A stretch of 64,000 bases of DNA, taken from positions 3,596,001 through 3,660,000 of the forward strand of contig NZ_UGQM01000001.1 in the NCBI RefSeq assembly GCF_900454025.1, given 5' to 3'. Below, piece after piece: positions 12,665 through 25,464 of the stretch. Every line of letters starts with the position of its first letter. The first letter of the stretch is position 1. Source of the stretch: Mycolicibacterium gilvum. Its GTDB lineage: Bacteria > Actinomycetota > Actinomycetes > Mycobacteriales > Mycobacteriaceae. The notes below the pieces were generated by a model. It did not search any database, was not told the DNA's origin, and saw only the letters and a list, made by a program, of their open reading frames with translations. The translations under genes and the position numbers were made by a program.

Positions 12665-13057
12665 TCAGTCGGCGGTGGGCTTGACCGCCAGGACCGGCTT
12701 CGGGCATTCGAGAATCAGCTTCTGCGCGACGCTGCCGAGCAGCAGTTTGCCCACCGGGTTGCGGTGCCGGATGCCGACCACCAGCATCTCGGCGTCGGCG
12801 CGGTCCATCGCGGCGAGCAGCTCGTCGGCGGGGTCGACCCCGACCGGCTGGACGAGTTCGTACGGCACCTCACACTCGGCCAGCCGGGCCTCGACGTCGC
12901 GGACCTCGGACTCGCCGGCGAACCGGGCGTCGACGTAGGACTCCCCCGCCGTCGCGTTGATCACAAGCAGGTTCGCACCACGCAACCGGGCCTCGGCGAT
13001 GCCGTGGTCGAGTGCGGCGTGCCCGAACGGGTCCGCGGTGTATCCGATGACGATCAT
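12665..13057 (-). CDS. Universal stress protein (single domain)
   Basis: The 130-residue protein begins [12 protein letters not shown] and ends with the ATP-binding pattern of the universal stress protein family ([15 protein letters not shown], then PVLAV). Such proteins often bind ATP and modulate their operon partners. Its ATG overlaps the tctA stop by four bases (ATGA), so it is the last cistron of the tctCBA operon. This suggests a regulatory role on the transporter. Confidence 0.88.
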
Positions 13058-14595
13058 GACTGCGACGCCTTTTCTCTCTGGTCCTTGTCGTCCTCGACGA
13101 TCAGCAGACTCTCCTCGCTGCGGTGCATGAGCCGCAGCACCAGCGGGGCGAGCAGCAGCAACGCCATCAGCACGTAGGTGACGATCGCGACGGGTTCGGT
13201 GAACAGGCTGCTCCACTCCCCGCCTCCGAGCTGCAGGCTCTGTCGCAGCTGGCGCTCGATGCGGGGGCCGAGGATGACGCCGATGATCAACGGCAGCACC
13301 GGAAGTCCGAAGCGCCGCATCATCAGACCCATCAGGCCGAAGATCAGCAGCAGCACCAGGTCCAGCGGCTGCAGGTTCACCGCGAACGCTCCGAGCGTGG
13401 CGAAGAACAGGATGCCCGCGTACAGGTACGGCCGCGGGGTCCGCAGCAGCTTGGCCCACAGCGGCGCCAGCGGAAGGTTCAGCGCGAGCAGCAGGAAGTT
13501 GCCGATGAACAAGCTCGCGATCAGCGTCCAGATCAGCAGCGGCTCCTTGTCGAACAGGGTGGGGCCGGGCTGGATGCCGTAGGACACGAAGGCGGTCAAC
13601 ATGACCGCCGCGGTCGCGTTGGTGGGCAGACCGAGCGAGAGCATCGGCACCAGAGTGCCTGCGGCCGAGGCGTTGTTGGCGGCCTCCGGCCCGGCGACAC
13701 CCTCGATGGCGCCCTTGCCGAACTCCTCGGGATGCTTGGTGAGCCTCTTCTCGGTGATGTAGCTCAGGAACGTCGGCAGCTCGGCGCCACCGGCAGGCAG
13801 CGCGCCGAACGGGAACCCGTAGGCGGTGCCGCGCAGCCACGGCTTCCAGGACCGCTTCCAGTCGTCCCTGCCCATCCAGGGCCTGCCGACCGGGATGACC
13901 TCGGCCGGACGGCGCCGCAGATGTGCTGCCACCCAGAGCGCCTCGCCGAGGGCGAACACCGCCACCGCGATGACGACGATGTCGATGCCGTCGGACAGCA
14001 ACGGCAGGCCGAAGGTGGCCCGCGGCTGACCGGTCAGCGAGTCGATGCCGACGATGCCGATCGCCAGGCCGAGCAGCAGTGAGATCACGCCGCGCATCTT
14101 CGACGAGCCGAGCACGGCGGTGACGGCGACGAGTGCGAACAGCATGATCGCCAGGTAGGACGGTGCGCCGAGGGTCACCGCGAAGCGCGAGATCGCGGGC
14201 GCGAAGGCGGCCAGCAGCGTCGTGCCGATCGCACCGGCGACGAAGGATCCGATGGCTGCGGTCGCCAGTGCCTGGGCGGCACGTCCGGCTTTGGCCATCT
14301 TGTTGCCTTCGAGGGCGGTGATGACCGACGACGATTCACCCGGGGTGTTCAGCAGGATGGAGGTCGTGGAACCTCCGTACATGCCGCCGTAGAAAATGCC
14401 GGCGAACATGATGAACGCCGCGCTGGGGCTGACGTTGTAGGTGATGGGCAGCAGTAGCGCCACCGTCATGGCCGGGCCGATGCCCGGCAGCACGCCGACC
14501 GCCGTGCCGAGCAGCACGCCGATGACGGCGTACATCAGGTTCGTCGGCGTCGCCGCCTCGGAAAACCCCTGCAGGAGCCAGTCGAAGTTCTCCAT
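13054..14595 (-). CDS. tctA: Tripartite tricarboxylate transporter, large permease subunit
   Basis: The 513-residue protein is a TctA permease with about twelve helices, including the family segments [20 protein letters not shown] and [18 protein letters not shown] near the N-terminus and [18 protein letters not shown] in the middle, followed by [15 protein letters not shown]. TctA forms the translocation channel with TctB and takes substrate from the binding protein TctC. The gene starts at the base after the tctB stop. Citrate or a related carboxylate is the family-typical substrate; the actual one is unknown. Confidence 0.93.
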
Positions 14596-15114
14596 CTACA
14601 GAATCCCATCCAAAATGCCTGCGGGCAGCGGAATTCCGAGCCCGGAATAGAACGCATAGAAGCTCGCAATGCCCAGCACCGCTCCGATCGCGATATTGCG
14701 CACGTAGTGCCTGCTGCCCAGGACGGTGGCGCATCCGCCGAAGAACAGGGCGCTGGTGATCGTCCAGCCGAGGGGTTCGACGAGCACGATCAGCAAGACG
14801 AACAGACCGACCAGCAGTCCGACGGTGCGCCAGTCGCTGGGCATGTCGGGATCGATGTCCTCCCCCGCGTCGGCCTCCCCCTTGAGCCCACGCGGGATCG
14901 CGATGGCCAGTATCACGGCCATCACCAGCAACGCCACCCCGATGACGATCGGGAAGAACCGGGGGCCAACGGGATCCACCTCGGCGTACCCGCCCGGCAT
15001 GGAGAGCCCGTCGTAGACGAGGAACCCGCCGACGGCGACCATGACGGCGCACACGATGTACTGGGCGTAGTCGGGCCGCTCGGATGTCTCGGTGCTCACG
15101 TGTTCGACGCTCAT
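14596..15114 (-). CDS. tctB: Tripartite tricarboxylate transporter, small membrane subunit
   Basis: The 172-residue protein has four predicted helices (beginning YIVCAVMVAVGGFLVYDG, then FFPIVIGVALLVMAVILAI and two more) and a charged loop around residues 75-95, as expected for TctB. The frame is open further upstream, but the ATG at 15114 is chosen because it overlaps the tctC stop as ATGA. It pairs with TctA in the membrane. Confidence 0.9.
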   Translation of the reverse strand: MSVEHVSTETSERPDYAQYIVCAVMVAVGGFLVYDGLSMPGGYAEVDPVGPRFFPIVIGVALLVMAVILAIAIPRGLKGEADAGEDIDPDMPSDWRTVGLLVGLFVLLIVLVEPLGWTITSALFFGGCATVLGSRHYVRNIAIGAVLGIASFYAFYSGLGIPLPAGILDGIL

Positions 15115-16094
15115 ACCAACCCCAGATCCGTCAGTGTCGATTCGACGCGCTGATCCTGTTCGGCCAGGAAGTCCTCGAACGGTTGGCCCGTCATGAACGC
15201 ATCGCTCCAGCCGTTCGTGACCAGCGCCTCCTTCCACGCCTCGGTCGCGTGCAACTCTTCGAGGATCCTGACCAGAGCCTGCCGGTCCTCCTCGGAGATG
15301 CCCGGTGGCGCAAGGACTCCGCGCCAGTTGGTGAACGTCAGGTCGATGCCGGCCTCCTTGAGCGTCGGGGCGTCGACGCCCTCGACCCGCTCCTCACCCG
15401 ACACCGCGAGCACCCGCACCTGGCCGGCCTCGATCTGGTCGACGTACTCGCCCAGACCCGAGGTGCCCGCGGAGATCTTGTTGCCCAGCAGTGCCGTCAG
15501 CAGGTCGCCGCCGCCGTCGTAGGACACGAAGTTGACCTTCGTCGGATCGACGCCGACGGCCTTCGCGGTCTCCATCGGGAAGAGATGGTCGGGCCCACCG
15601 GGATTCGACCCGCCGCCGATGGTCACCTTGGCCGGATCGGCCTTCCACGCGTCCACGAAGTCCTGCACGGTCTGGAACGGCGAGTCGGCGGGCACCAGGA
15701 TGCCCTCCTGCTCCTCGACGACCTTGGCCAGCGCGGTGGCGTCCGAGGCGCGGGCGGTGGAGCCGTTGGTGAACACCGCGCCGACCACACCGAGGCCCAT
15801 CATCATCATCAGGTCGCCGTTGCCGCGCTCGTTCATCAGGCGCGCCATCGCCACGGTGCCGCCGGCACCGATGACGTTGAACACCTCGACGCGACCGGTG
15901 ATCTCGTCGTCCTCCATGATCTTGACCGCGGTGCGGGCCGTCAGGTCGTATCCGCCCCCGGGGCTGTTGGGCACCATCATCCTCAGACGGTGCAGACCGG
16001 TTTCCTCGCCGCGGGTCACCCCGCACGAACAGAGAAGGAGCGTGACGACCGCGGCGATGACCACGCCGACGATCGTTCGGCGCCGTGCGAACAT
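15111..16094 (-). CDS. tctC: Tripartite tricarboxylate transporter, extracytoplasmic substrate-binding protein
   Basis: This 327-residue protein is a TctC/Bug-type binding protein: a signal peptide ending LLLCSCG (lipobox-like, so probably a lipoprotein), then VPNSPGGGYDLTAR, the ligand-binding loop of the family, and GGGSNPGGPDH. It delivers a carboxylate to TctAB. The ATG at 16094 is preferred over one at 16109 because GGGGAC lies just upstream. It is the first gene of the leftward tctCBA-usp operon and faces a CitA/CitB-type two-component system 65 bases away. Confidence 0.92.
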   Translation of the reverse strand: MFARRRTIVGVVIAAVVTLLLCSCGVTRGEETGLHRLRMMVPNSPGGGYDLTARTAVKIMEDDEITGRVEVFNVIGAGGTVAMARLMNERGNGDLMMMMGLGVVGAVFTNGSTARASDATALAKVVEEQEGILVPADSPFQTVQDFVDAWKADPAKVTIGGGSNPGGPDHLFPMETAKAVGVDPTKVNFVSYDGGGDLLTALLGNKISAGTSGLGEYVDQIEAGQVRVLAVSGEERVEGVDAPTLKEAGIDLTFTNWRGVLAPPGISEEDRQALVRILEELHATEAWKEALVTNGWSDAFMTGQPFEDFLAEQDQRVESTLTDLGLV

Positions 16095-16104
16095 GTCGTC
16101 CCCA

Positions 16105-16156
16105 ATCACTTGTGATGCTCAGCAATACTGGACCCCACGGGTGACCCACGTCACCC
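16105..16156. promoter_or_regulatory. Divergent control region of tctCBA and the two-component system
   Basis: Two inverted repeats lie between the divergent genes: ATCAC-TT-GTGAT (16105-16116) and GGGTGAC-CCAC-GTCACCC (16139-16156, seven-base perfect arms). They are good candidates for binding by the response regulator encoded at 17807. The second repeat ends only two bases before the proposed kinase start at 16159, which leaves that start, or the role of the repeat, open. Confidence 0.45.
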
Positions 16157-16158
16157 AT

Positions 16159-17814
16159 GTGGACGCAAAGGAAGTTCTGGTCATTAAGAACATTCGGTCG
16201 ACGGCCGGCGGCCTGCTGCGGGGACGCAGTCTGGCCGCGCAGTTCCTGGTGTTCCAGCTCTTCGTCGTGGCCGTCGTCCTCGTCGCCGTGGCCGCCGTCT
16301 CGGTGGCCCAGTCCGAAGGCGAGTTCCGTGACGTGCGGGGCCAGCGGATGATCGCCGTCGCCGAGAACATGGCCTCGACTCCCATCGTGCGCGAACGCAC
16401 CGAGCAGACCCGGGCCGATCCGTTCCTCGCGCGCACCCTCGCCCCCGAGGTCGACCGCGCCGTGGCCCTTTCCGGCGCCTCCCTCGCCGAGATCCTCGGC
16501 CCGGACGGGACGGTGCGCGCGTCGTCGGATCCGTCGCGGGTCGGGGCCCGGGTCGACCTCGGCGCCACCCGCGCCGACGAGGGCCGGGCCTGGTTCGGTG
16601 ACACCGACATCGACGGCACGCACAGCCTGGTCGGTCAGGTGCCGATCCTGTCGACCGACGGCGAGGTCCTCGCGATCGCGTCGGTCAGTGAGGCGTACCC
16701 GTCGGTGTGGGGACTGCTCAGCGGCGCCGGCGAGAGCCTGCTGGTGTACCTCGGCCTGGGAGCGGCACTGGGGCTCCTCGCGTCGTGGCTGCTCTCACGG
16801 CGGATCAAACGCCAGACCGGCGGCCTGGAGGTGGCCGAGATCGCGAGCCTCGCCGACCACCGGGAAGCCCTGTTGCACAGCATCCGCGAGGGTGTCATCG
16901 CGGTGAACGGCAGCGGAGAGATCACCCTGCTCAACGACGGCGCGCAGGAACTCCTCGACGTGACCGGCCCCGCCGTGGGCCGCCCGGTGGATTCGGTCGG
17001 CATCGACCCGGCGGTGGTGTCTCTGCTGACACCCGGCCAGGAAAGCGAGTCCGCCATGGACACCGTGATCGCGACGCGCACGCGGGTGCTCGCGCTGAGC
17101 CGCCGTCCGGCCACCAGCCAGGGCCGCAGGATCGGTACGGTGACGACGATGCGCGACAGTACCGAACTCGCTGCGCTGCAGGGACAGTTGTCGTCGCACA
17201 AGAGTGTGACCGACACCCTGCGCGCGCAGGCGCACGAGTTCGCCAACCAGTTACACACGATCTCCGGCCTGGTGCAGCTCGGTGAATTCGACGCGGTGCG
17301 TGATCTGGTGGGCACCCTGACCCGGCGGCGCGCCGAGATCAGCGACGCGGTGACACAACGGATCTCCGACCCGGCGGTGGCGGCGCTGCTGATCGCCAAG
17401 ACCTCGCTGGCGGCCGAGAGCGGGGTGGCGCTGGATCTGGACCCGGCATCACACCTGGCGGCACTGGATCCCGCACTCGCCACCGACGTGATCACCCTGT
17501 TGGGCAACCTGATCGACAACGCCGTCGACGTCTCGGTCGGGTCGACGCCGGCGCGGGTGACCGTCGGCATCGATGACCGTGACGGCCTCTCGATCCTGGT
17601 GAGTGACACCGGACCCGGTGTGCCCGAACATCTTCGGGAGGCGATCTTCTCCCGCGGGGTGACGTTAAAGCCGGATGTGCCCGGCGGCCGGGGAATCGGC
17701 CTCGCGCTGGTGCGGTTGGTGACCGCCCAGCACGGGGGCACCGTGGAGGTCGCCGACGTCCCCGGTGGCGGGGCACGTTTCGAGGTCCGGCTGAAGGCGG
17801 CCACCCATGCGTGA
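16159..17814 (+). CDS. CitA/DcuS-type sensor histidine kinase
   Basis: The roughly 551-residue kinase has an N-terminal helix (QFLVFQLFVVAVVLVAVAAV), an extracytoplasmic sensor domain of about 130 residues with the PAS-like pattern LAEILGPDGTVRASSDP, a second helix (LLVYLGLGAALGLLASWLL), a cytoplasmic PAS domain, a phospho-acceptor helix with AQAHEFANQLHTISGL and a HATPase domain with NLIDNAVD and GRGIGLALV. This is the architecture of citrate or C4-dicarboxylate sensors. The start is uncertain: GTG at 16159 is used; GTG at 16141 is also in frame. The response regulator gene overlaps its end by eight bases. Confidence 0.88.
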   Translation: MDAKEVLVIKNIRSTAGGLLRGRSLAAQFLVFQLFVVAVVLVAVAAVSVAQSEGEFRDVRGQRMIAVAENMASTPIVRERTEQTRADPFLARTLAPEVDRAVALSGASLAEILGPDGTVRASSDPSRVGARVDLGATRADEGRAWFGDTDIDGTHSLVGQVPILSTDGEVLAIASVSEAYPSVWGLLSGAGESLLVYLGLGAALGLLASWLLSRRIKRQTGGLEVAEIASLADHREALLHSIREGVIAVNGSGEITLLNDGAQELLDVTGPAVGRPVDSVGIDPAVVSLLTPGQESESAMDTVIATRTRVLALSRRPATSQGRRIGTVTTMRDSTELAALQGQLSSHKSVTDTLRAQAHEFANQLHTISGLVQLGEFDAVRDLVGTLTRRRAEISDAVTQRISDPAVAALLIAKTSLAAESGVALDLDPASHLAALDPALATDVITLLGNLIDNAVDVSVGSTPARVTVGIDDRDGLSILVSDTGPGVPEHLREAIFSRGVTLKPDVPGGRGIGLALVRLVTAQHGGTVEVADVPGGGARFEVRLKAATHA

Positions 17815-18472
17815 CGTGCTGGTGGTCGACGACGATTTCATGGTCGCCGAGATCCACCGCCGCTTCGTCGACCGCATCGACGGGTTCCGGGTGGTCGGGG
17901 TGGCGCGCACCGGGGCCGAGGCGCTGGAGGCGACGCGGCAGCTGCGGCCGCAACTGATCCTGCTCGATGTATACCTGCCCGACATGACCGGCCTGGAGGT
18001 TCTGCAGCAGCTGCGATCCGGCGGCGACCGGGTCGACGTCATCGTGATCACCGCGGCGCGCGAGCTCGACACCGTCCGCGGGGCGCTCGACGGCGGGGCG
18101 GCCGACTATCTGATCAAGCCGTTCGAATTCTCGCAACTGGAGACGAAACTCACCGCGTACGCCGCCCGCGCCGACGCTCTGCAGTCGGCCCGGGGAGCGG
18201 ATCAGGACCTGATCGACGCGCTGTTCGGCGGTCCGTCGGTCGCTCCGGCGAAAACCATGCCCAAGGGGCTGGGCGCCGAGACAGGCGAGCTGGTGCTCGA
18301 TGCGGTGCGCACCGCGGGCGAGGTGTCGGCGGCCGAATGCGCTGACCTGGTCGGCATCTCGCGGGTCAGCGCCCGCCGCTATCTGGAGCACTATCTCGGT
18401 ACCGGCACCCTGGAGCTGCGTTTGCAATACGGGGTGGGCCGGCCGGAGCGCCGGTACCGGATAGCGGGTTAG
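17807..18472 (+). CDS. CitB/DcuR-type response regulator
   Basis: The 221-residue regulator has a receiver domain with the acidic pocket VVDDD (residues 6-10), phospho-acceptor Asp54 in LILLDVYLPD and the conserved KPF lysine near residue 105. Its C-terminal domain (about 150-221) carries a helix-turn-helix (SAAECADLVGISRVSARRYL) as in CitB/DcuR. With the overlapping kinase gene it should control the divergent tct operon. Its stop overlaps the stop of the convergent glycoside hydrolase gene. Confidence 0.9.
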   Translation: MRDVLVVDDDFMVAEIHRRFVDRIDGFRVVGVARTGAEALEATRQLRPQLILLDVYLPDMTGLEVLQQLRSGGDRVDVIVITAARELDTVRGALDGGAADYLIKPFEFSQLETKLTAYAARADALQSARGADQDLIDALFGGPSVAPAKTMPKGLGAETGELVLDAVRTAGEVSAAECADLVGISRVSARRYLEHYLGTGTLELRLQYGVGRPERRYRIAG

Positions 18473-20382
18473 ACGATCGTGCGGTCCCTGATCGTGCCGG
18501 TGCCGGAACCATCGGCCAGTGTCGCGCCCGCCGGGCTCGACAGCGTCACCAGGAACGTCTCGTTGCCCTCCATCACCGTGTCTGCGAACACGACCACGGT
18601 GATCGTCTTGTGGGTCTCCCCCGGCTGGAAGGTCAGCGTGCCGATCGCCGGCGCGTAATCGCTGCCGGCACCCGCGGTCTGGTTCGACGTGGCGTACTGC
18701 ACCGTCACCACCTGTGTGGAGGCCGCGGCGAGCGACACCACGAACTGCGCGAGCACGCCCGGGCTGCTGTCGTCGAAATCGAACTGGATGGCTTCCAGGT
18801 AGGCCATCTTGTTCGTGTTGACCGTCCTCCAGTCGTCGGCCAGGATTCCGCCGGTGTCCCGGGAATTGGGGTTCCACGACCAGAACGTCCACGACATGTC
18901 CTCGGTGCCGGCCGCGATGTCGACGGTGCCGTCGTTGTCGAAGTCGCCGGAGAGGTACGACGTGATGGCCTCGTACCAGACGACGTCCTTGGGATCGCTG
19001 AGCCGCGTGCCGAGTTCACCGAGGTAGATCGGGGCGATGTTCTGCTCGTAGATGTAGCCCCACATCTGTTCGAACTTGTCCGGTAGCGCGGCACCGAAGT
19101 TCGCGGTCTGGAACCAGGGCTGCGCGTACACCGAGTTCGGATAGTCGTGCGGGGAGTACACGACGCGGTTCGGCGTGTTCAGCACGATCGGGCGATCCTT
19201 GACACCCATCAGATTGCCACCCCACCAATAGGAATGCCCCTGGTAGTCGGCCACCCCCTCGACGAAGATGAGCCAGTTCGAATTCACCGACAGCACAGCG
19301 TTGCCCGCGCGTTCGGCGGCTGCGGCCCAGTCGGTGGCGCCGCCACCGCCCCAGGTTCCGGCATGAGGCTCGTTGTGCAGATCCGCGCCGATCACCGTCG
19401 GGGTGTTCGCATACCGCTGGGCGAGCATCGTCCAGTCGTCGATCCATGCCGCCTCGGTGTAGGAGCCCTCGTACCAGAGCCCGTTGCTGTTCGGGCCCGC
19501 GCCCTTGCTGCTGCGGTGGTGGTCGAGGATGACGCGCATCCCGATCTCGCCGGCGTAGCCGACGATCTTGTCCATGATCTGCAGCGCCGACAGTCCCGCG
19601 AGGTCCGGGTTCTTTCCGAAGTCGATGCCGTTGGGCGCCGCGCCGGTGTGCAGCATCTCGCTGGAGTACGCGAGTCGGATCGTGTTGAAATCCAACGCCG
19701 CCATCTCGTTCATCATCTCTTTGTAGTTGCGGGTCCAGAGGCCGTGTGGCGCAAAGGTTTCGCTCTCCATGCCGAACCAGTTGACGCCGGCGATCTGCAC
19801 GGGACGTCCCGCCGAGTCGACGATCTGGTTGCCGGAGGTGGAGAACCAGCCCGGCGCGACGCCGACCCCCGGCGCGCCCTCGGTCACCGAGGCATCGGAG
19901 ATGCTCAACGAGATGTTGGCCGGTACGGCGACGTCGTCGTTGACGATGGTGCCGAGCGCGGAGCCGTCGGATATCGTCGCGCCCGCGGGATTCGACAGCG
20001 TCAGGGTGAAGGTCTCGTTCGCCTCCACCGCGGCATCGCCGGTGACCGAGACCTGAATCTGCTGTGACAACACGCCGGGCGCGAACGTGACCGTCCCCGA
20101 CTTCGCGGTGTAGTCGACGCCGGCCGTGGCCGTCCCGTTCGAGGTCGCGTACGCGACGGTGACCGGACTGGTCGACGATCTGGACAGCGTGACCACGAAC
20201 GTCATCTGCGTCGTCCCGGAGTTCGATTCGCCGACCGACGCGTCGGCCACCGAGACGGTGGGCGGTTGCGCGGGAGCCGACTGCCCGTTGACCGTGAAGT
20301 TCGACGCGGTCGCCGACCCGCCGCCCGGGGACGCCTGGAACCCGAATGTCACGGTCTGGCCGGCGGCGATCTCGGGTTCCAC
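18469..20382 (-). CDS. 3' part of the frameshifted GH18-GH5 protein: CBM2 end, Calx-beta, GH5 endoglucanase, Calx-beta
   Basis: This 637-codon frame starts at a GTG that is only an accident of the frameshift: its first residues, AAGQTVTFGFQASPGG, complete the CBM2 domain left unfinished by the upstream frame. Then come a Calx-beta module (residues about 45-150), a GH5 catalytic domain (about 165-540) and a partial Calx-beta module to the end. GH5 landmarks are IAGVNWFGMES, LHNEPHAG with the acid/base glutamate, and IYLGELGTR with the nucleophile glutamate, which suggests a beta-1,4-glucanase. There is no signal peptide in this frame, so unless the frameshift is bypassed or is a sequencing error, this enzyme is not exported and may not be made. 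Confidence 0.8.
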   Translation of the reverse strand: MEPEIAAGQTVTFGFQASPGGGSATASNFTVNGQSAPAQPPTVSVADASVGESNSGTTQMTFVVTLSRSSTSPVTVAYATSNGTATAGVDYTAKSGTVTFAPGVLSQQIQVSVTGDAAVEANETFTLTLSNPAGATISDGSALGTIVNDDVAVPANISLSISDASVTEGAPGVGVAPGWFSTSGNQIVDSAGRPVQIAGVNWFGMESETFAPHGLWTRNYKEMMNEMAALDFNTIRLAYSSEMLHTGAAPNGIDFGKNPDLAGLSALQIMDKIVGYAGEIGMRVILDHHRSSKGAGPNSNGLWYEGSYTEAAWIDDWTMLAQRYANTPTVIGADLHNEPHAGTWGGGGATDWAAAAERAGNAVLSVNSNWLIFVEGVADYQGHSYWWGGNLMGVKDRPIVLNTPNRVVYSPHDYPNSVYAQPWFQTANFGAALPDKFEQMWGYIYEQNIAPIYLGELGTRLSDPKDVVWYEAITSYLSGDFDNDGTVDIAAGTEDMSWTFWSWNPNSRDTGGILADDWRTVNTNKMAYLEAIQFDFDDSSPGVLAQFVVSLAAASTQVVTVQYATSNQTAGAGSDYAPAIGTLTFQPGETHKTITVVVFADTVMEGNETFLVTLSSPAGATLADGSGTGTIRDRTIV

Positions 20383-23300
20383 GCCGCGTTGCGCACGACA
20401 TAGTGATTGCCGACCCGGCTGACGATCTCGGCGTTCCAGATGTTGCCGATCTGCGCCGGGGTGTCGAACTCGACGGTCCAGCCGTTCAGCGCCGACGATC
20501 CGGCCTTGACGGTGACGGTGGCGGTGAAACCCGATCCCCAGTTGTCGTTCACGACCATCGTGGCTGACGCATTGCCCGGAGTGGGTGTGGCCACATCGTC
20601 GTTGGTGATGGTGCCGATCGCGCTGCCGTCGGCGATCGTCACGCCACTGGGATTCGACAGGGTCACCGTGAACGTCTCGTCGGCCTCCACCGTCGTGTCA
20701 CCGAGCACCGGCACCGAGATCTGCTGGGAGGTCATCCCCGCCGCGAAGGTCACCACACCCGACGCCGCGGTGAAATCACCACCCGCGGTGGCTGTTCCGT
20801 TCGACGTCGCATACGCCACACTCACCGGTGAGGTCGCGGGTTTGTCCAACGTCAGCACGAACACGATGTTCTTCGTCCCGCTGTGGGACTCCACGACACC
20901 GGCATCGGCGATCGACACCTTCGGCGGCACCACGACCGGCTGACCGGTCGCCGCACCGTTGACGGTGAAGTTGGTCGCCGTCGCCGAACCGCCACCCGGG
21001 GAGGCCTGGAAGCCGAACGTGACGGTCTGCCCGGCAGCCACCTGCGCGTTGTACGACACGTTACGCACCACGTAGTGGTTGCCGACCCGGCTGACGATCT
21101 CGGCGTTCCAGATATTGCTGATCTGAGCCGGCGAGTCGAACTCGACCGTCCACCCGTTCATGCCGGACGCCCCGGCGGTGAGCGCGACCGACGCGGTGAA
21201 CCCGGAGCCCCAGTTGTCGTTGACGGTGTACTTCACCGACGCGTTTGCGCCCGGCGTCGGCGTCACGCCGTCGTCGTCGGTGATCGCGCCGACGGCGGTG
21301 GCGTCGGCGATCGTCGCGCCCGTGGGGTTCGACAGGGTCACCGAGAAGGTTTCGGCGGACTCCGCGACGGTGTCACCGAGGATGCCGACGTGCACCGTCT
21401 GCGACGTCACACCGGGTGCGAATGTGACAGTGCCCGTGGCCGCCACGTAATCGGTGCCGGCGACCGCCGTGCCGTTCGACGTCGCGTACCGCACCGTTAC
21501 CGTCTGGGTGGACGGCTTGTCGAGCGTGACGACGAACATCGCGTGCGCGCCGGCGCCGTTCCCTTCGGCCACCGTGAGGTCGGCGATCGAGATCGCCGGC
21601 GGCGGACCGGAGATCGGATTGACCGTGCCGTAGTCGTTGAACACGGCGCTGAAACCGCCTGTGGGCGTATTGGTCCCGGACGTGGTCGTGGTCGCCTGAC
21701 CGATGTTGCCGGGATAGTCGCGGTTGAGCGACCACATCGACAGCATGCCCAGGCCGCGGGCGCGGGCGAAGTCCTCCAGCGCCTGCGAGTCGGCCACCGT
21801 GAACACCTCGGTCAGCACGTCGTTGACACCGATCATCGGCGTCACGCCGAGCTGGTTCCACGCGAAGGTCTGGCCGTATCCCGAATACAGGGTGCTCAGC
21901 TGCGCGTGGGTGGACTCCGCGGCCTGGATCGCCCAGGCGCCCATGGTCTTTGCGTTGGGTCCACTGGTGGGCGCCGCCGACTCGCCGTAGTCCATCGCCA
22001 TGATGTTGACGCCGTCGAGCGTCACGCCGGCCTCGATCGCCTTACGCACGACGTTGAGGCCGTCGGCGGTCAGACCGCTGGGCAGCACCGGCAGGGTGTA
22101 CCAGATCTCGAGGTCGGGCCGAAGCTGCTGAAGAAGGCGCAGCGCCTGTGCGTTCAGCGCGATCGACGCCGGCTCGGCCACCGCGGGACCCTCGATGTCG
22201 AAGTCGATGCGGTTGAGCTTGTAGGTGTCGGCGACAGCGGCGTACGCGTCGGCCAGCGCCTGCGGACCGAGGCCGTGCGCCGCATACCACTGGGCGAGGC
22301 TGGTGCCCGACGCCCCTCCCAGCGAGATCATCACGTCGCCGCCGGCGGCCTGCAGCGCCGCGATCGACTGGTTGATCGCCCTGGCCTGGTCGAAGTCCGA
22401 ATCGGGGGTCAGCGCAGACAACCCCGCCCACGCCAGTTTCCCGTCAGGCGTGGCCTGCATGAAGCCCAGGGTGAGCAGCGAGATCCCCCGCTGCTGCGCC
22501 AGAGCCAGCAGGTTGGGCACGGGCCAGGCGCCCATGTCCACGTAGGGGGCGAAGAAGGCCTCGCCCCACAGTGCGTCGCCGGGGTTTCCGGAATTGACAC
22601 CGCCGGTGCCCGGGGTGACGACCGTGTCGTCGTCAGTGATGGTGCCGGTGGCGACTCCGTCGCCGATGGTCGCTCCGGTGGGATTCGTCAGCGTCACGAA
22701 GAACGTCTCGTTCTGCTCGACCACGGTGTCGCCGAGGACGTCCACATGCACGAGTTGTGTGGTGACACCGGGCGCGAACGTGACGGTGCCGGTCGTCGCG
22801 GCGTAGTCCACACCGGCGGTCGCGGTGCCGTTGGACGTCGCGTACCGCACCGTCACCGTCTCCGTCGACGGCTTGCTCAGTGTGGCGACGAACATGAAGT
22901 GGCTGTGGTCGCCGTTGCCCTCGGTCACGGTGAGGTCGGCGATCGACACGGTCGGCGGTGTCGTCGGCGCCTGGTCCACGTCGTCGTTGCGGATCGTGCC
23001 GAGACCGGTGCCGTCGGCGATGGTCGCGTTCACCGGGGCGGACAGGGTGAGAGTGAGCTGTTCGTCGAATTCGACCAGCGTGTCACCGTTCACGGTGACG
23101 GCGACCGTCTTCGAGGTCTGGCCGGGGGTGAACGTCAGCGTCCCGACAGCCGGGACGTAGTCGCCGCCGGCTGCGGTCGCGCTGCCGTTGCTGGTGCTGT
23201 AGCTGACCGTGACCGTGTCGGTGGAGGCCTTCGACATCGTCACCGTGAAGGTGAGCGTCGAGGTGCCGGAGTTCCCCTCGGACACGACCGCGTCAGCGAC

Positions 23301-25400
23301 CGACAGCTTCGGTTGCGAAACCGTCTGTCCGGCACCGTAGATCAGGTTGCTCCACTCGGTGCGGGCGCTGTCATCGAGGGCGATGATGTTGCTCGTCGTG
23401 AGCTCGCCGATCGCGACGCCGGCCAGCGTGTAGGTCTGGTTGTTGCCGGCGATGGCGATCTTGGTGGATCCGGCCACCTCGGTGACGTCGAACTCGTGCG
23501 CCTTGAACCAGCCGAAGTCCAGCTTGTCCCTGCCGGGATCGAAGTTCAGCGCGGTGTGGCTGCCGTACTGCCACGAGATCTTGGTCGTGGTGCCGGTCTG
23601 ACCCGTCGGCGGCTGGCCGGTGCCGGCGGTGGTGGGCCAGGTGTCGGTCCCGGCGTAGGTGACGCCCTGCGGCAGTACCTGGGAATCGGGAACTGTGCCG
23701 ATGCCGAGTTGCTGGTGCAACCGGTCCTCGCGCACCTGTGCGCTGTGGAAGACGAAGTTCTTCGCGGTGAGCTGACTTGTGGTCACTCCCTGCAGGATCA
23801 GCGCCTGCCCGGTCCCCGCGTTGGAGATCACGACCCCGTCGGGGGTGTCGGACATGTAGAGCTGTTCGCGGGTGCCGTAGTACCGGAAGTCGACGACGTC
23901 GGTCGCCGCGGTGAACGCGACCCGGTCGATCTGTCCGACCTCGTGTGAGCGCGCGTAGACGGTGTTGGCCTTCGGGGTGACTCCCTGCTCCCAGGCCAGT
24001 GCCCCGGAAAGGTCCTGGCGCAGATGGTCGTTGATGATCGGCACGAAGCTGTCGACGGTCAGCTGGCTCAGCGAGACGCCCTGCAGGACGGTGGTCTCGC
24101 CGGACCAGGGATTGCGGAATCCGACGCCTTCGGCGGTGTCGACGACGATGAAGTTGTGCACCGACACATCGCCGAGGTCGAGTTTGTCTCTGGCGGGATC
24201 GAATCCGACGATGTCGGGTCCGGAGGTGGTGATGTGGTGGATCGTCCCGGTCGCCGTCCCGGTCGCGGTCGTGGCCGCCGACGCGGTGGTGGCCCTGGCA
24301 GCCCTGGTCGAGATCGTCTGGGTGGCAACGCCGTCGGCGCCGAACGTGATGGTGACCGGAACCTGGGTCCTGGTGGGTGTGACGGAGATCAGGTGGAAGC
24401 CGGCGTCGCGGACGCCGATGACGAAGGTGTCGGCACCCGCGGCGGCCGCGGACGTGCCGGCGGTGTAGGTGAACCTCCCGGCGGCATCGACGGTGACGGT
24501 CCCCCGCGTGGGGGCTTCGACCACGGAGTAGACCAGGTCGTCCCCCTCGGGATCGGACGCGATCACCGTTCCGGTCACGACACCGGGAGCGGTCTGGCTG
24601 GTCGGGCCCAGCACCGCCGACGGGCCGTTGTTGGCGAAGAGCCTGTCCATCTCCCGTCGGATCGCCCCGAGCACCGCGGTGACGACCTCGTAGACGGGCA
24701 GTGGAGCCGAGCCGTCGCCGGCCGAGGAGCCGATCCCCAACACGCGCAGGAATGTCGTGACGATGTCGGTCAACCCCGTGGACACCGTGGCGGTCTGCCC
24801 GCTCGTCCGTGCGGGGGTGGAGGACACGGTCAGCGTCTGGACGTCTTGGTCGGCCGAGGTCGCCCGGTGCATGCCTCTGTCATCCGACGGTGCCACCGGC
24901 TCCGCCGCGTCCGCAGGACGGTCGGACACGGCGATCGCGGCGTCGTCGGGTTCGGCCGAGGGTTCCGTCGGGCCTGCGGCCGGGGTTTCGCGATCATTCT
25001 CCGGACGCGGCTCAGCGGAGTCGCCGTCGCGGCGGCTCACCTCGGAATCGGTGGCGTCGGGCACGTCCTCCACGGACGGATCCTCGACGTCGGATACCGG
25101 ATCCGACTCCTCGTCGAGGGGTTCCCGGTCTCCGGAATCTATCTCCGGATCCTCGGAATCGTCTGTCGGACCGTCGCTGTCGCGGTCGGACCCGGCGGGT
25201 TCGCCGGCGTCGTCCGAGCGATCGGCAGATTCGGTCGCGCGCACACGATCGGGCTTTGCCGGGCCTCCCACGTCCGAGCCCCCCGACTGTGCACTGGAGT
25301 CGTCTGAGGGTTCTGCGGCAGCAACGGCGGGGACGGCAAGTCCGATCCCCAACGCCACAGCTAACGCACCGACGCGACCAACAAAACGTCCGTAGCCCAT
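20349..25400 (-). CDS. 5' part of the giant secreted protein: signal peptide, cadherin-like and repeat region, Calx-beta, GH18 chitinase, CBM2
   Basis: About 1,683 residues. A signal peptide (GALAVALGIGLAVPAVAAAE) is followed by an acidic low-complexity region (to about 190), a VCBS/cadherin-like domain (about 275-345), three copies of a module recognisable as FDPxRDKLDxG (about 400-645), two Calx-beta modules, a GH18 domain (about 940-1235) with the catalytic motif RIDFDIEG, then Calx-beta, CBM2, Calx-beta and a second CBM2 that breaks off at the frameshift. CBM2 copies share NDNWGSGFTA and GWTVEFD. GH18 suggests chitin hydrolysis, CBM2 binding to chitin or cellulose. The ATG at 25400 is preferred over 25421 because AGGAGTGAG lies 7 bases before it. 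The frame ends 20-30 bases after the frameshift near 20375. Confidence 0.85.
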   Translation of the reverse strand: MGYGRFVGRVGALAVALGIGLAVPAVAAAEPSDDSSAQSGGSDVGGPAKPDRVRATESADRSDDAGEPAGSDRDSDGPTDDSEDPEIDSGDREPLDEESDPVSDVEDPSVEDVPDATDSEVSRRDGDSAEPRPENDRETPAAGPTEPSAEPDDAAIAVSDRPADAAEPVAPSDDRGMHRATSADQDVQTLTVSSTPARTSGQTATVSTGLTDIVTTFLRVLGIGSSAGDGSAPLPVYEVVTAVLGAIRREMDRLFANNGPSAVLGPTSQTAPGVVTGTVIASDPEGDDLVYSVVEAPTRGTVTVDAAGRFTYTAGTSAAAAGADTFVIGVRDAGFHLISVTPTRTQVPVTITFGADGVATQTISTRAARATTASAATTATGTATGTIHHITTSGPDIVGFDPARDKLDLGDVSVHNFIVVDTAEGVGFRNPWSGETTVLQGVSLSQLTVDSFVPIINDHLRQDLSGALAWEQGVTPKANTVYARSHEVGQIDRVAFTAATDVVDFRYYGTREQLYMSDTPDGVVISNAGTGQALILQGVTTSQLTAKNFVFHSAQVREDRLHQQLGIGTVPDSQVLPQGVTYAGTDTWPTTAGTGQPPTGQTGTTTKISWQYGSHTALNFDPGRDKLDFGWFKAHEFDVTEVAGSTKIAIAGNNQTYTLAGVAIGELTTSNIIALDDSARTEWSNLIYGAGQTVSQPKLSVADAVVSEGNSGTSTLTFTVTMSKASTDTVTVSYSTSNGSATAAGGDYVPAVGTLTFTPGQTSKTVAVTVNGDTLVEFDEQLTLTLSAPVNATIADGTGLGTIRNDDVDQAPTTPPTVSIADLTVTEGNGDHSHFMFVATLSKPSTETVTVRYATSNGTATAGVDYAATTGTVTFAPGVTTQLVHVDVLGDTVVEQNETFFVTLTNPTGATIGDGVATGTITDDDTVVTPGTGGVNSGNPGDALWGEAFFAPYVDMGAWPVPNLLALAQQRGISLLTLGFMQATPDGKLAWAGLSALTPDSDFDQARAINQSIAALQAAGGDVMISLGGASGTSLAQWYAAHGLGPQALADAYAAVADTYKLNRIDFDIEGPAVAEPASIALNAQALRLLQQLRPDLEIWYTLPVLPSGLTADGLNVVRKAIEAGVTLDGVNIMAMDYGESAAPTSGPNAKTMGAWAIQAAESTHAQLSTLYSGYGQTFAWNQLGVTPMIGVNDVLTEVFTVADSQALEDFARARGLGMLSMWSLNRDYPGNIGQATTTTSGTNTPTGGFSAVFNDYGTVNPISGPPPAISIADLTVAEGNGAGAHAMFVVTLDKPSTQTVTVRYATSNGTAVAGTDYVAATGTVTFAPGVTSQTVHVGILGDTVAESAETFSVTLSNPTGATIADATAVGAITDDDGVTPTPGANASVKYTVNDNWGSGFTASVALTAGASGMNGWTVEFDSPAQISNIWNAEIVSRVGNHYVVRNVSYNAQVAAGQTVTFGFQASPGGGSATATNFTVNGAATGQPVVVPPKVSIADAGVVESHSGTKNIVFVLTLDKPATSPVSVAYATSNGTATAGGDFTAASGVVTFAAGMTSQQISVPVLGDTTVEADETFTVTLSNPSGVTIADGSAIGTITNDDVATPTPGNASATMVVNDNWGSGFTATVTVKAGSSALNGWTVEFDTPAQIGNIWNAEIVSRVGNHYVVRNAAWNPRSPPARP

Positions 25401-25464
25401 CAGCAACTCACTCCTGTCCATTCATCGCCGCCCGACCCATGGGATGTGGCAAACCCGACCCCGC

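What the first reader, a model, noticed from the sequence alone, without database searches (positions are those of the whole stretch)
18469..25400. A very large secreted GH18 + GH5 enzyme with CBM2 and Calx-beta modules in a mycobacterium
Read across the frameshift, the gene encodes about 2,300 residues: signal peptide, acidic linker, VCBS-like domain, three unknown repeats, several Calx-beta modules, a GH18 chitinase domain, two CBM2 domains and a GH5 cellulase domain. Joining chitinase and cellulase activities in one exported mycobacterial protein suggests use of fungal or plant cell walls, or remodelling of a cellulose-containing biofilm.
Basis: partly seen in the sequence, partly recalled or inferred. 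Interest (0 to 1): 0.75.

Follow-up and report, generated by a model that had tools for sequence, protein, structure and literature searches.

The report
Mycobacterial chitinase-cellulase giant with broken gene
An environmental-type mycobacterium carries the gene of a very large, probably exported enzyme with a chitin-cutting and a cellulose-cutting domain; relatives have it whole, here its reading frame is broken ahead of the cellulose-cutting half, and that half sits inside a split calcium-binding-type bead.

Summary
On the minus strand, overlapping frames A (20349-25421, 1690 aa) and B (18469-20382, 637 aa) carry the named modules: GH18 and CBM2 in A, GH5 in B, Calx-beta in both. Catalytic glutamates of both enzymes are present. 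Relatives show one gene: 63 of the 120 listed homologues carry both domains, and the 8 closest named loci have one open frame. The frame change is peculiar to this copy; mutation and sequencing error could not be told apart.

The pairing is not new: cellulase:chitinase proteins of mycobacteria were reported in 2016 (PMC4928363), and GH5 with Calx-beta in endoglucanase CelE2 in 2023 (title only seen). What I add: GH5 is inserted between strands A and B of a Calx-beta domain in 37 of 37 distinct sequences tested, from two phyla; this GH5 and a close GH18 co-occur in the genus even as separate genes; two relatives keep the GH18 half without GH5. Activity, export, substrate and any calcium effect are inferred.

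The parts
20349..25421 (-). Frame A, 1690 aa, with GH18
   Evidence: ORF; Pfam
18469..20382 (-). Frame B, 637 aa, with GH5 (its listed GTG start lies inside the CBM2 module, no signal peptide)
   Evidence: ORF; Pfam
25314..25400 (-). Signal-peptide-like stretch (A 8-36)
   Evidence: by eye from the translation; relatives begin at the same Met; no predictor was run
24747..25313 (-). Acidic linker (A 37 to about 225)
   Evidence: by eye from the translation
24402..24596 (-). Big_9 Ig-like domain (A 276-340)
   Evidence: Pfam
23247..24269 (-). Three unassigned repeats (A about 385-725; the last residues overlap the next Calx-beta)
   Evidence: no Pfam match; alignment
22977..23294 (-). Calx-beta (A 710-815)
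22617..22937 (-). Calx-beta (A 829-935)
   Evidence: Pfam (829-932)
21636..22562 (-). GH18 domain (A about 954-1262); catalytic Glu codon 22191-22193
   Evidence: Pfam; PDB 9buf, 2dsk
21264..21581 (-). Calx-beta (A 1281-1386)
20946..21245 (-). CBM2 no. 1 (A 1393-1492)
   Evidence: Pfam
20592..20897 (-). Calx-beta (A 1509-1610)
20278..20573 (-). CBM2 no. 2, in which the reading frame changes (5' part in A, 3' part in B)
   Evidence: Pfam
19978..20253 (-). Calx-beta (B 44-135)
   Evidence: Pfam
19876..19914 (-). Strand A of the split Calx-beta domain, upstream of GH5
   Evidence: alignment A1; HMM test
18778..19854 (-). GH5 domain (B 177-535); catalytic Glu codons 19369-19371 and 19015-19017
   Evidence: Pfam; PDB 8fc0, 1ece
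18484..18759 (-). Remaining strands of the split Calx-beta domain
   Evidence: Pfam

Best explanation
The gene is this genome's copy of a modular polysaccharide-degrading enzyme of one clade of environmental mycobacteria: a GH18 chitinase domain and a GH5 endoglucanase domain on one chain, with two CBM2 modules to hold substrate and Calx-beta beads as spacers, GH5 being inserted between strands A and B of the last bead. Shown here: modules, catalytic residues, one gene in relatives, mostly the same chromosomal place, nesting by sequence. Inferred: that it is exported and cuts chitin and cellulose in mixed dead matter such as algal, oomycete, fungal or plant walls. In this genome as sequenced the frame change would leave a 1690-aa chitinase half without GH5.
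For: Pfam over cut-off for GH18, GH5, Calx-beta, CBM2. GH5: 8fc0 CelE2 E 3.2e-186, 1ece E1 E 8.4e-120; both Glu in 23 of 23 aligned sequences. GH18: 9buf E 6.1e-59 and 2dsk E 1.4e-40, DFDIE motif aligned. 63 of 120 listed homologues (327 found) carry both domains, 1855-2537 aa. The 8 closest of 80 named loci have one frame of 2202-2553 aa. 11 other genomes of 198 in the genus sample have both in one open frame (matched by hand). dN/dS against 6 relatives: A 0.21-0.25, B 0.12-0.20. Nesting: 37 of 37 pieces before GH5, 0 of 78 before GH18, 0 of 97 before CBM2; 42 of 42 pieces behind GH5 begin at HMM 25-35 of 126.
Against: No activity was measured in anything I read; export is judged by eye. The GH18 Pfam score is modest (34.7 against 29.6). 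The frame change means that the full enzyme may not be made here. The place is not the same in every relative: of three further genomes, G085 keeps only one side and G027 and G099 none of the five neighbours sought in the stretches taken. Counts of co-occurrence are not corrected for kinship. The structure tool gave no contacts, so nesting rests on sequence and predicted strands; two planctomycete pieces (L061, L063) match strand A only weakly (4.1 bits).
Confidence: 0.75

Rival explanations
1. The frame change is a sequencing or assembly error and the strain makes the whole enzyme.
For: B still looks selected (dN/dS 0.12-0.20, GC3 0.91) and is open over 637 aa; intact copies exist in close relatives; the gene is long, GC-rich and repetitive.
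Against: In 400 kb of this genome 2 of 137 comparable genes look cleanly split, 0 of 143 in G082 (the window gene itself is not caught by that test), so the assembly is not full of such splits. Relatives without the GH5 half exist, so a real loss is plausible.
Confidence: 0.45
2. The frame change is a real, young mutation: the strain exports a chitinase half and has lost the cellulase half, as some relatives have.
For: G099 (one contig) has a GH18 90% identical in a frame that ends after the second CBM2, and no GH5 match in its genome; P0018 lacks GH5; few other splits in this genome.
Against: No sign of decay in B; a single assembly was seen.
Confidence: 0.5
3. The enzyme remodels or disperses a cellulose-containing biofilm of the mycobacterium itself rather than feeding on foreign walls.
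For: Cellulose in mycobacterial biofilms and dispersal by the cellulase Rv0062 are reported (PMC4848537, PMC10816823; search listing only).
Against: It does not explain the chitinase; relatives of the GH18-GH5 pair occur in planctomycetes.
Confidence: 0.15
4. A and B are two genes, or one gene read by programmed frameshifting.
For: Two overlapping frames, both open.
Against: Intact single frames in the 8 closest named loci, in 11 other genomes of the genus and in 63 listed homologues; B begins inside a CBM2 module.
Confidence: 0.03

Closest known systems
Cellulase:chitinase multi-activity proteins of Mycobacteria, Chitinophaga and Thiotrix (PMC4928363, 2016; passages, section 7)
   Same: Cellulase and chitinase domains on one bacterial protein, mycobacteria named
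   Different: The paper gives counts (6 of 217); its Figure 4 was not visible to me; the text I saw mentions neither Calx-beta nesting nor loss of GH5
Endoglucanase CelE2, metagenome-derived (PDB 8fc0; Pimentel 2023, title only, seen in a reference list)
   Same: Closest solved GH5 (E 3.2e-186; 70% identity over 357 residues); its construct begins with the same upstream Calx-like strand and the title names GH5 and Calx-beta
   Different: The solved construct holds no GH18 and ends about where GH5 ends; whether the paper describes the split is unknown to me
Endocellulase E1 of Acidothermus cellulolyticus (PDB 1ece)
   Same: GH5 fold and catalytic residues aligned
   Different: The solved catalytic domain has no Calx-beta module
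Exochitinase 1 (PDB 9buf) and Pyrococcus furiosus chitinase (PDB 2dsk)
   Same: Closest solved GH18 domains, DFDIE motif aligned
   Different: More distant (E 6.1e-59 and 1.4e-40); no GH5 in the solved chains
Na+/Ca2+ exchanger CBD1 (Calx-beta; PDB 2dpk, 3us9)
   Same: Downstream part of the split module aligns with it; several calcium ligands have equivalents
   Different: No enzyme is inserted in CBD1; the terminal acidic run is not fully kept here

Membership tests
GH18 | Pfam GH18 over the curated cut-off | tested here: met
   34.7 bits against 29.6
GH18 | DxDxE motif with catalytic Glu | tested here: met
   DFDIE at A 1073-1077, aligned with 9buf and 2dsk. The first Asp of the longer motif DxxDxDxE (recalled) is Asn here and Thr in 9buf and 2dsk
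GH18 | Chitinase activity | not testable with these tools
   -
GH5 | Pfam Cellulase over the cut-off | tested here: met
   165.7 bits against 23.5
GH5 | Acid/base and nucleophile Glu | tested here: met
   23 of 23 at both columns; roles recalled, both aligned with 1ece
GH5 | Endoglucanase activity | not testable with these tools
   -
CBM2 | Pfam CBM_2 over the cut-off | tested here: met
   116.1 bits, two stretches, in frame A; the piece in B (19.1 bits) is below the cut-off of 24
Calx-beta, split module | Both parts match complementary stretches of the Calx-beta profile | tested here: met
   37 of 37 pieces before GH5 at HMM 11-16 to 26-34, 42 of 42 behind it from 25-35
Calx-beta, split module | Calcium ligands known from NCX1 CBD1 kept | tested here: inconclusive
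   Equivalents of E385 (by eye), D421, D447 and E451 in 21 of 23 each. Of the terminal acidic run (by eye), the second residue is Asp in 11 of 23, Arg in 10 with the window, Ala in 2; the third is Asp in 11 of 23, Thr in the window
RTX-like beta-roll (the three repeats) | Fold match | tested here: inconclusive
   Model pLDDT 69.4, pTM 0.52; best Foldseek E 1.8e-3 with TM 0.18

The most novel reading that the evidence does not exclude
This GH5 is a conserved passenger displayed from the loop between strands A and B of a split Calx-beta bead, in Actinomycetota and Planctomycetota alike; calcium bound by residues from both sides of the insert would staple and orient the enzyme, and this portable cassette has been added to and dropped from GH18 chitinases many times.
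Probability: 0.35. Interest if true: 0.55.

Novelty: new member of a known kind. Interest (0 to 1): 0.4.

Why it matters
It gives mycobacteria, usually discussed as pathogens, a likely saprotrophic tool for mixed chitin and cellulose matter, and a testable structural rule: an enzyme barrel kept as an insert in a calcium-type bead in two phyla. If true, cutting such a GH5 at its Pfam borders breaks its neighbour domain, which matters to anyone who expresses these enzymes.

Tried and rejected
Two genes or programmed frameshifting: rejected by relatives. Error-ridden assembly: the first test was noisy (16 of 125 in this genome, 11 of 129 in G082, many of them overlong ORFs by my reading); the stricter one gave 2 of 137 and 0 of 143. 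The stricter filters were chosen, and neither test catches the window gene, whose repeated modules defeat it.

Nesting test: the first profile lacked strand A. The rebuilt one was counted in a wrong profile range (0 of 37) and recounted with a range chosen after seeing the placements; the same range was used for the controls. At a score of 6 the count is 35 of 37, at 8 it is 30 of 37. Pieces that were identical, held X or lay under 24 residues from the frame end were dropped before counting, and GH5 matches not covering most of the domain were left out.

VIA-align was filled by GH5 chains, so it neither shows nor excludes the Calx-beta fold around the insert. The fold search of the repeats gave no trusted match; the PDB sequence search of Big_9 plus repeats gave a collar sheath protein over the Big_9 part. 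GH18 on plasmids: 35 records, all under 60% identity. My histidine-kinase query was out of frame and gave nothing. Neighbours in three further genomes (five neighbours sought): G085 keeps GATase and TIGR01777-like genes but showed no RR, TctA or TctC in about 2.9 kb behind the gene; in G027 (contig ends 425 bases ahead of the frame) and G099 none of the five was found in the stretches taken.

Literature (PMC library only). None of the listings showed me a paper on this protein or on the nesting; most listed papers were not opened, and Pimentel 2023 was not readable.

Full report
What is there. The window lies in a 6.43-Mb genome of 11 contigs. On the minus strand frame A (20349-25421, 1690 aa) and frame B (18469-20382, 637 aa) overlap. 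Pfam puts Big_9, four Calx-beta, GH18 and two CBM2 stretches in A, and the end of a CBM2, two Calx-beta and GH5 in B. The frame changes inside the second CBM2 module. As the organism is a mycobacterium, the pieces were analysed apart.

One gene or two? Of 327 homologues of the GH18 piece the best 120 were listed; 63 of these 120 carry both GH18 and GH5 (1855-2537 aa), 57 GH18 alone. Of 80 named loci the 8 closest, all titled Mycolicibacterium or Mycobacterium (L011-L018), have one open frame of 2202-2553 aa with the same order of modules apart from the number of Calx-beta copies. Behind the gene, the response regulator and TctA, TctB and TctC are found in 8 of 8 named loci and in G082; ahead of it GATase, TIGR01777-like and phosphoribosyltransferase genes in 7 of 8 (not L017) and in G082; wag31 in 6 of 8 and in G082. 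Three further genomes differ: G085 shows only the GATase side, and in G027 and G099 none of five neighbours was found in the stretches taken. In 198 genomes of the genus 27 matched the GH5 piece at E 1e-20; leaving out G099, whose matches are Calx-beta only, 26 have this GH5, this genome included. 11 others have GH5 and GH18 in one open frame (matched by hand).

Is the break real? Against six relatives dN/dS is 0.21-0.25 for A and 0.12-0.20 for B, so B has not visibly decayed. In 400 kb around the gene 2 of 137 comparable genes look cleanly split, against 0 of 143 in G082. A young mutation and a sequencing error both remain possible. Intact copies exist in relatives.

The GH5 half is missing elsewhere too. 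G099, a single-contig genome with a GH18 90% identical, has a frame that ends after the second CBM2, and neither its locus nor its genome gave a GH5 match. P0018 (1508 aa) lacks GH5 but ends with residues like the family's usual end. So forms with the chitinase half alone occur.

GH5 is nested. Before GH5 stands a stretch like strand A of Calx-beta, behind it the other strands. A profile of 144 distinct intact Calx-beta modules (126 positions) from the same proteins places 37 of 37 distinct pieces before GH5 at positions 11-16 to 26-34 (score 4 or more; 35 at 6 or more, 30 at 8 or more), against 0 of 78 pieces before GH18 and 0 of 97 before CBM2; 42 of 42 pieces behind GH5 begin at positions 25-35 and run to 122-126. 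The set spans loci titled Actinomycetota and Planctomycetota (MAG names can be wrong, as for one called Bifidobacterium). The two weakest pieces are planctomycete (L061, L063; 4.1). Among the listed homologues with both domains a simple motif for the upstream strand is found in 60 of 63. The AlphaFold model (pLDDT 80.4, pTM 0.76) gives strands at 12-15 and 18-21, then the barrel, then strands at 396-486; contacts were not available. Chain F of 8fc0 is resolved over 360 residues numbered 19-378 of a 381-residue chain, so the upstream stretch seems to be disordered where the downstream part is absent.

Calcium. In NCX1 CBD1, E385, D446, D447, E451, D498, D499 and D500 bind calcium and D421 does in the isolated domain (PMC3386913, passages). 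Equivalents of E385 (upstream of the insert, placed by eye), D421, D447 and E451 (downstream, from the alignment) are present in 21 of 23 sequences each; D446 is not kept, and the terminal acidic run is reduced in the window and nine others, Arg standing at its second place. Calcium stapling is therefore inference, with mixed support.

Pairing of chitinase and cellulase. On a quick tree of 85 GH18 domains, GH5 in the same frame changes at least 9 times (76 rows counted: 24 with, 52 without; 9 of unknown state left out). By my tally 21 of 29 genus genomes with a close GH18 (E under 1e-130) also have this GH5, against 5 of the other 169; in 9 of the 21 the two lie in separate open frames. The order also differs: GH5 stands ahead of GH18 in L061-L063 and behind it in the other loci that hold both. 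Kinship is not corrected for. This fits joint use on mixed substrates but shows no mechanism.

Known or new? PMC4928363 (passages and section 7) reported 6 cellulase:chitinases among 217 multi-activity proteins, from Mycobacteria, Chitinophaga and Thiotrix. A 2023 paper on the GH5 and Calx-beta domains of CelE2 exists; I saw only its title in a reference list. The find is a member of a known kind; the nesting and the repeated gain or loss of GH5 are what I did not see described in the listings and passages I read.

Noticed in passing
window 23247-24269: The three repeats form an unassigned, strongly conserved module (mean column identity 82% over 14 sequences); matches to it lie in 37 of the 80 named GH18 loci, planctomycetes included (my count).
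   Followed up: partly
L119: A related nested GH5 gene in another genome of the genus (G053) is also in two frames, the split lying inside GH5.
   Followed up: no
P0075, P0098, P0101, P0112: Chytrid fungi carry GH18 domains 39-42% identical to this one; on the quick tree they group with Thermogemmatispora (96% SH-aLRT, one row with a long branch), a possible transfer between kingdoms.
   Followed up: partly
G000 C1:467958-469142 (L002, L010): A second GH5-like gene of this genome follows a Calx-beta module and is not nested in it.
   Followed up: partly
G000, places listed: Several other large proteins of this genome share the N-terminal head of frame A (signal-like start, acidic linker or Big_9) at 31-39% identity.
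   Followed up: no
window 13054-18472: Beside the gene lie genes like a Tct tricarboxylate transporter and a two-component system (names recalled from the translations), kept in the 8 closest named loci as far as tested.
   Followed up: partly
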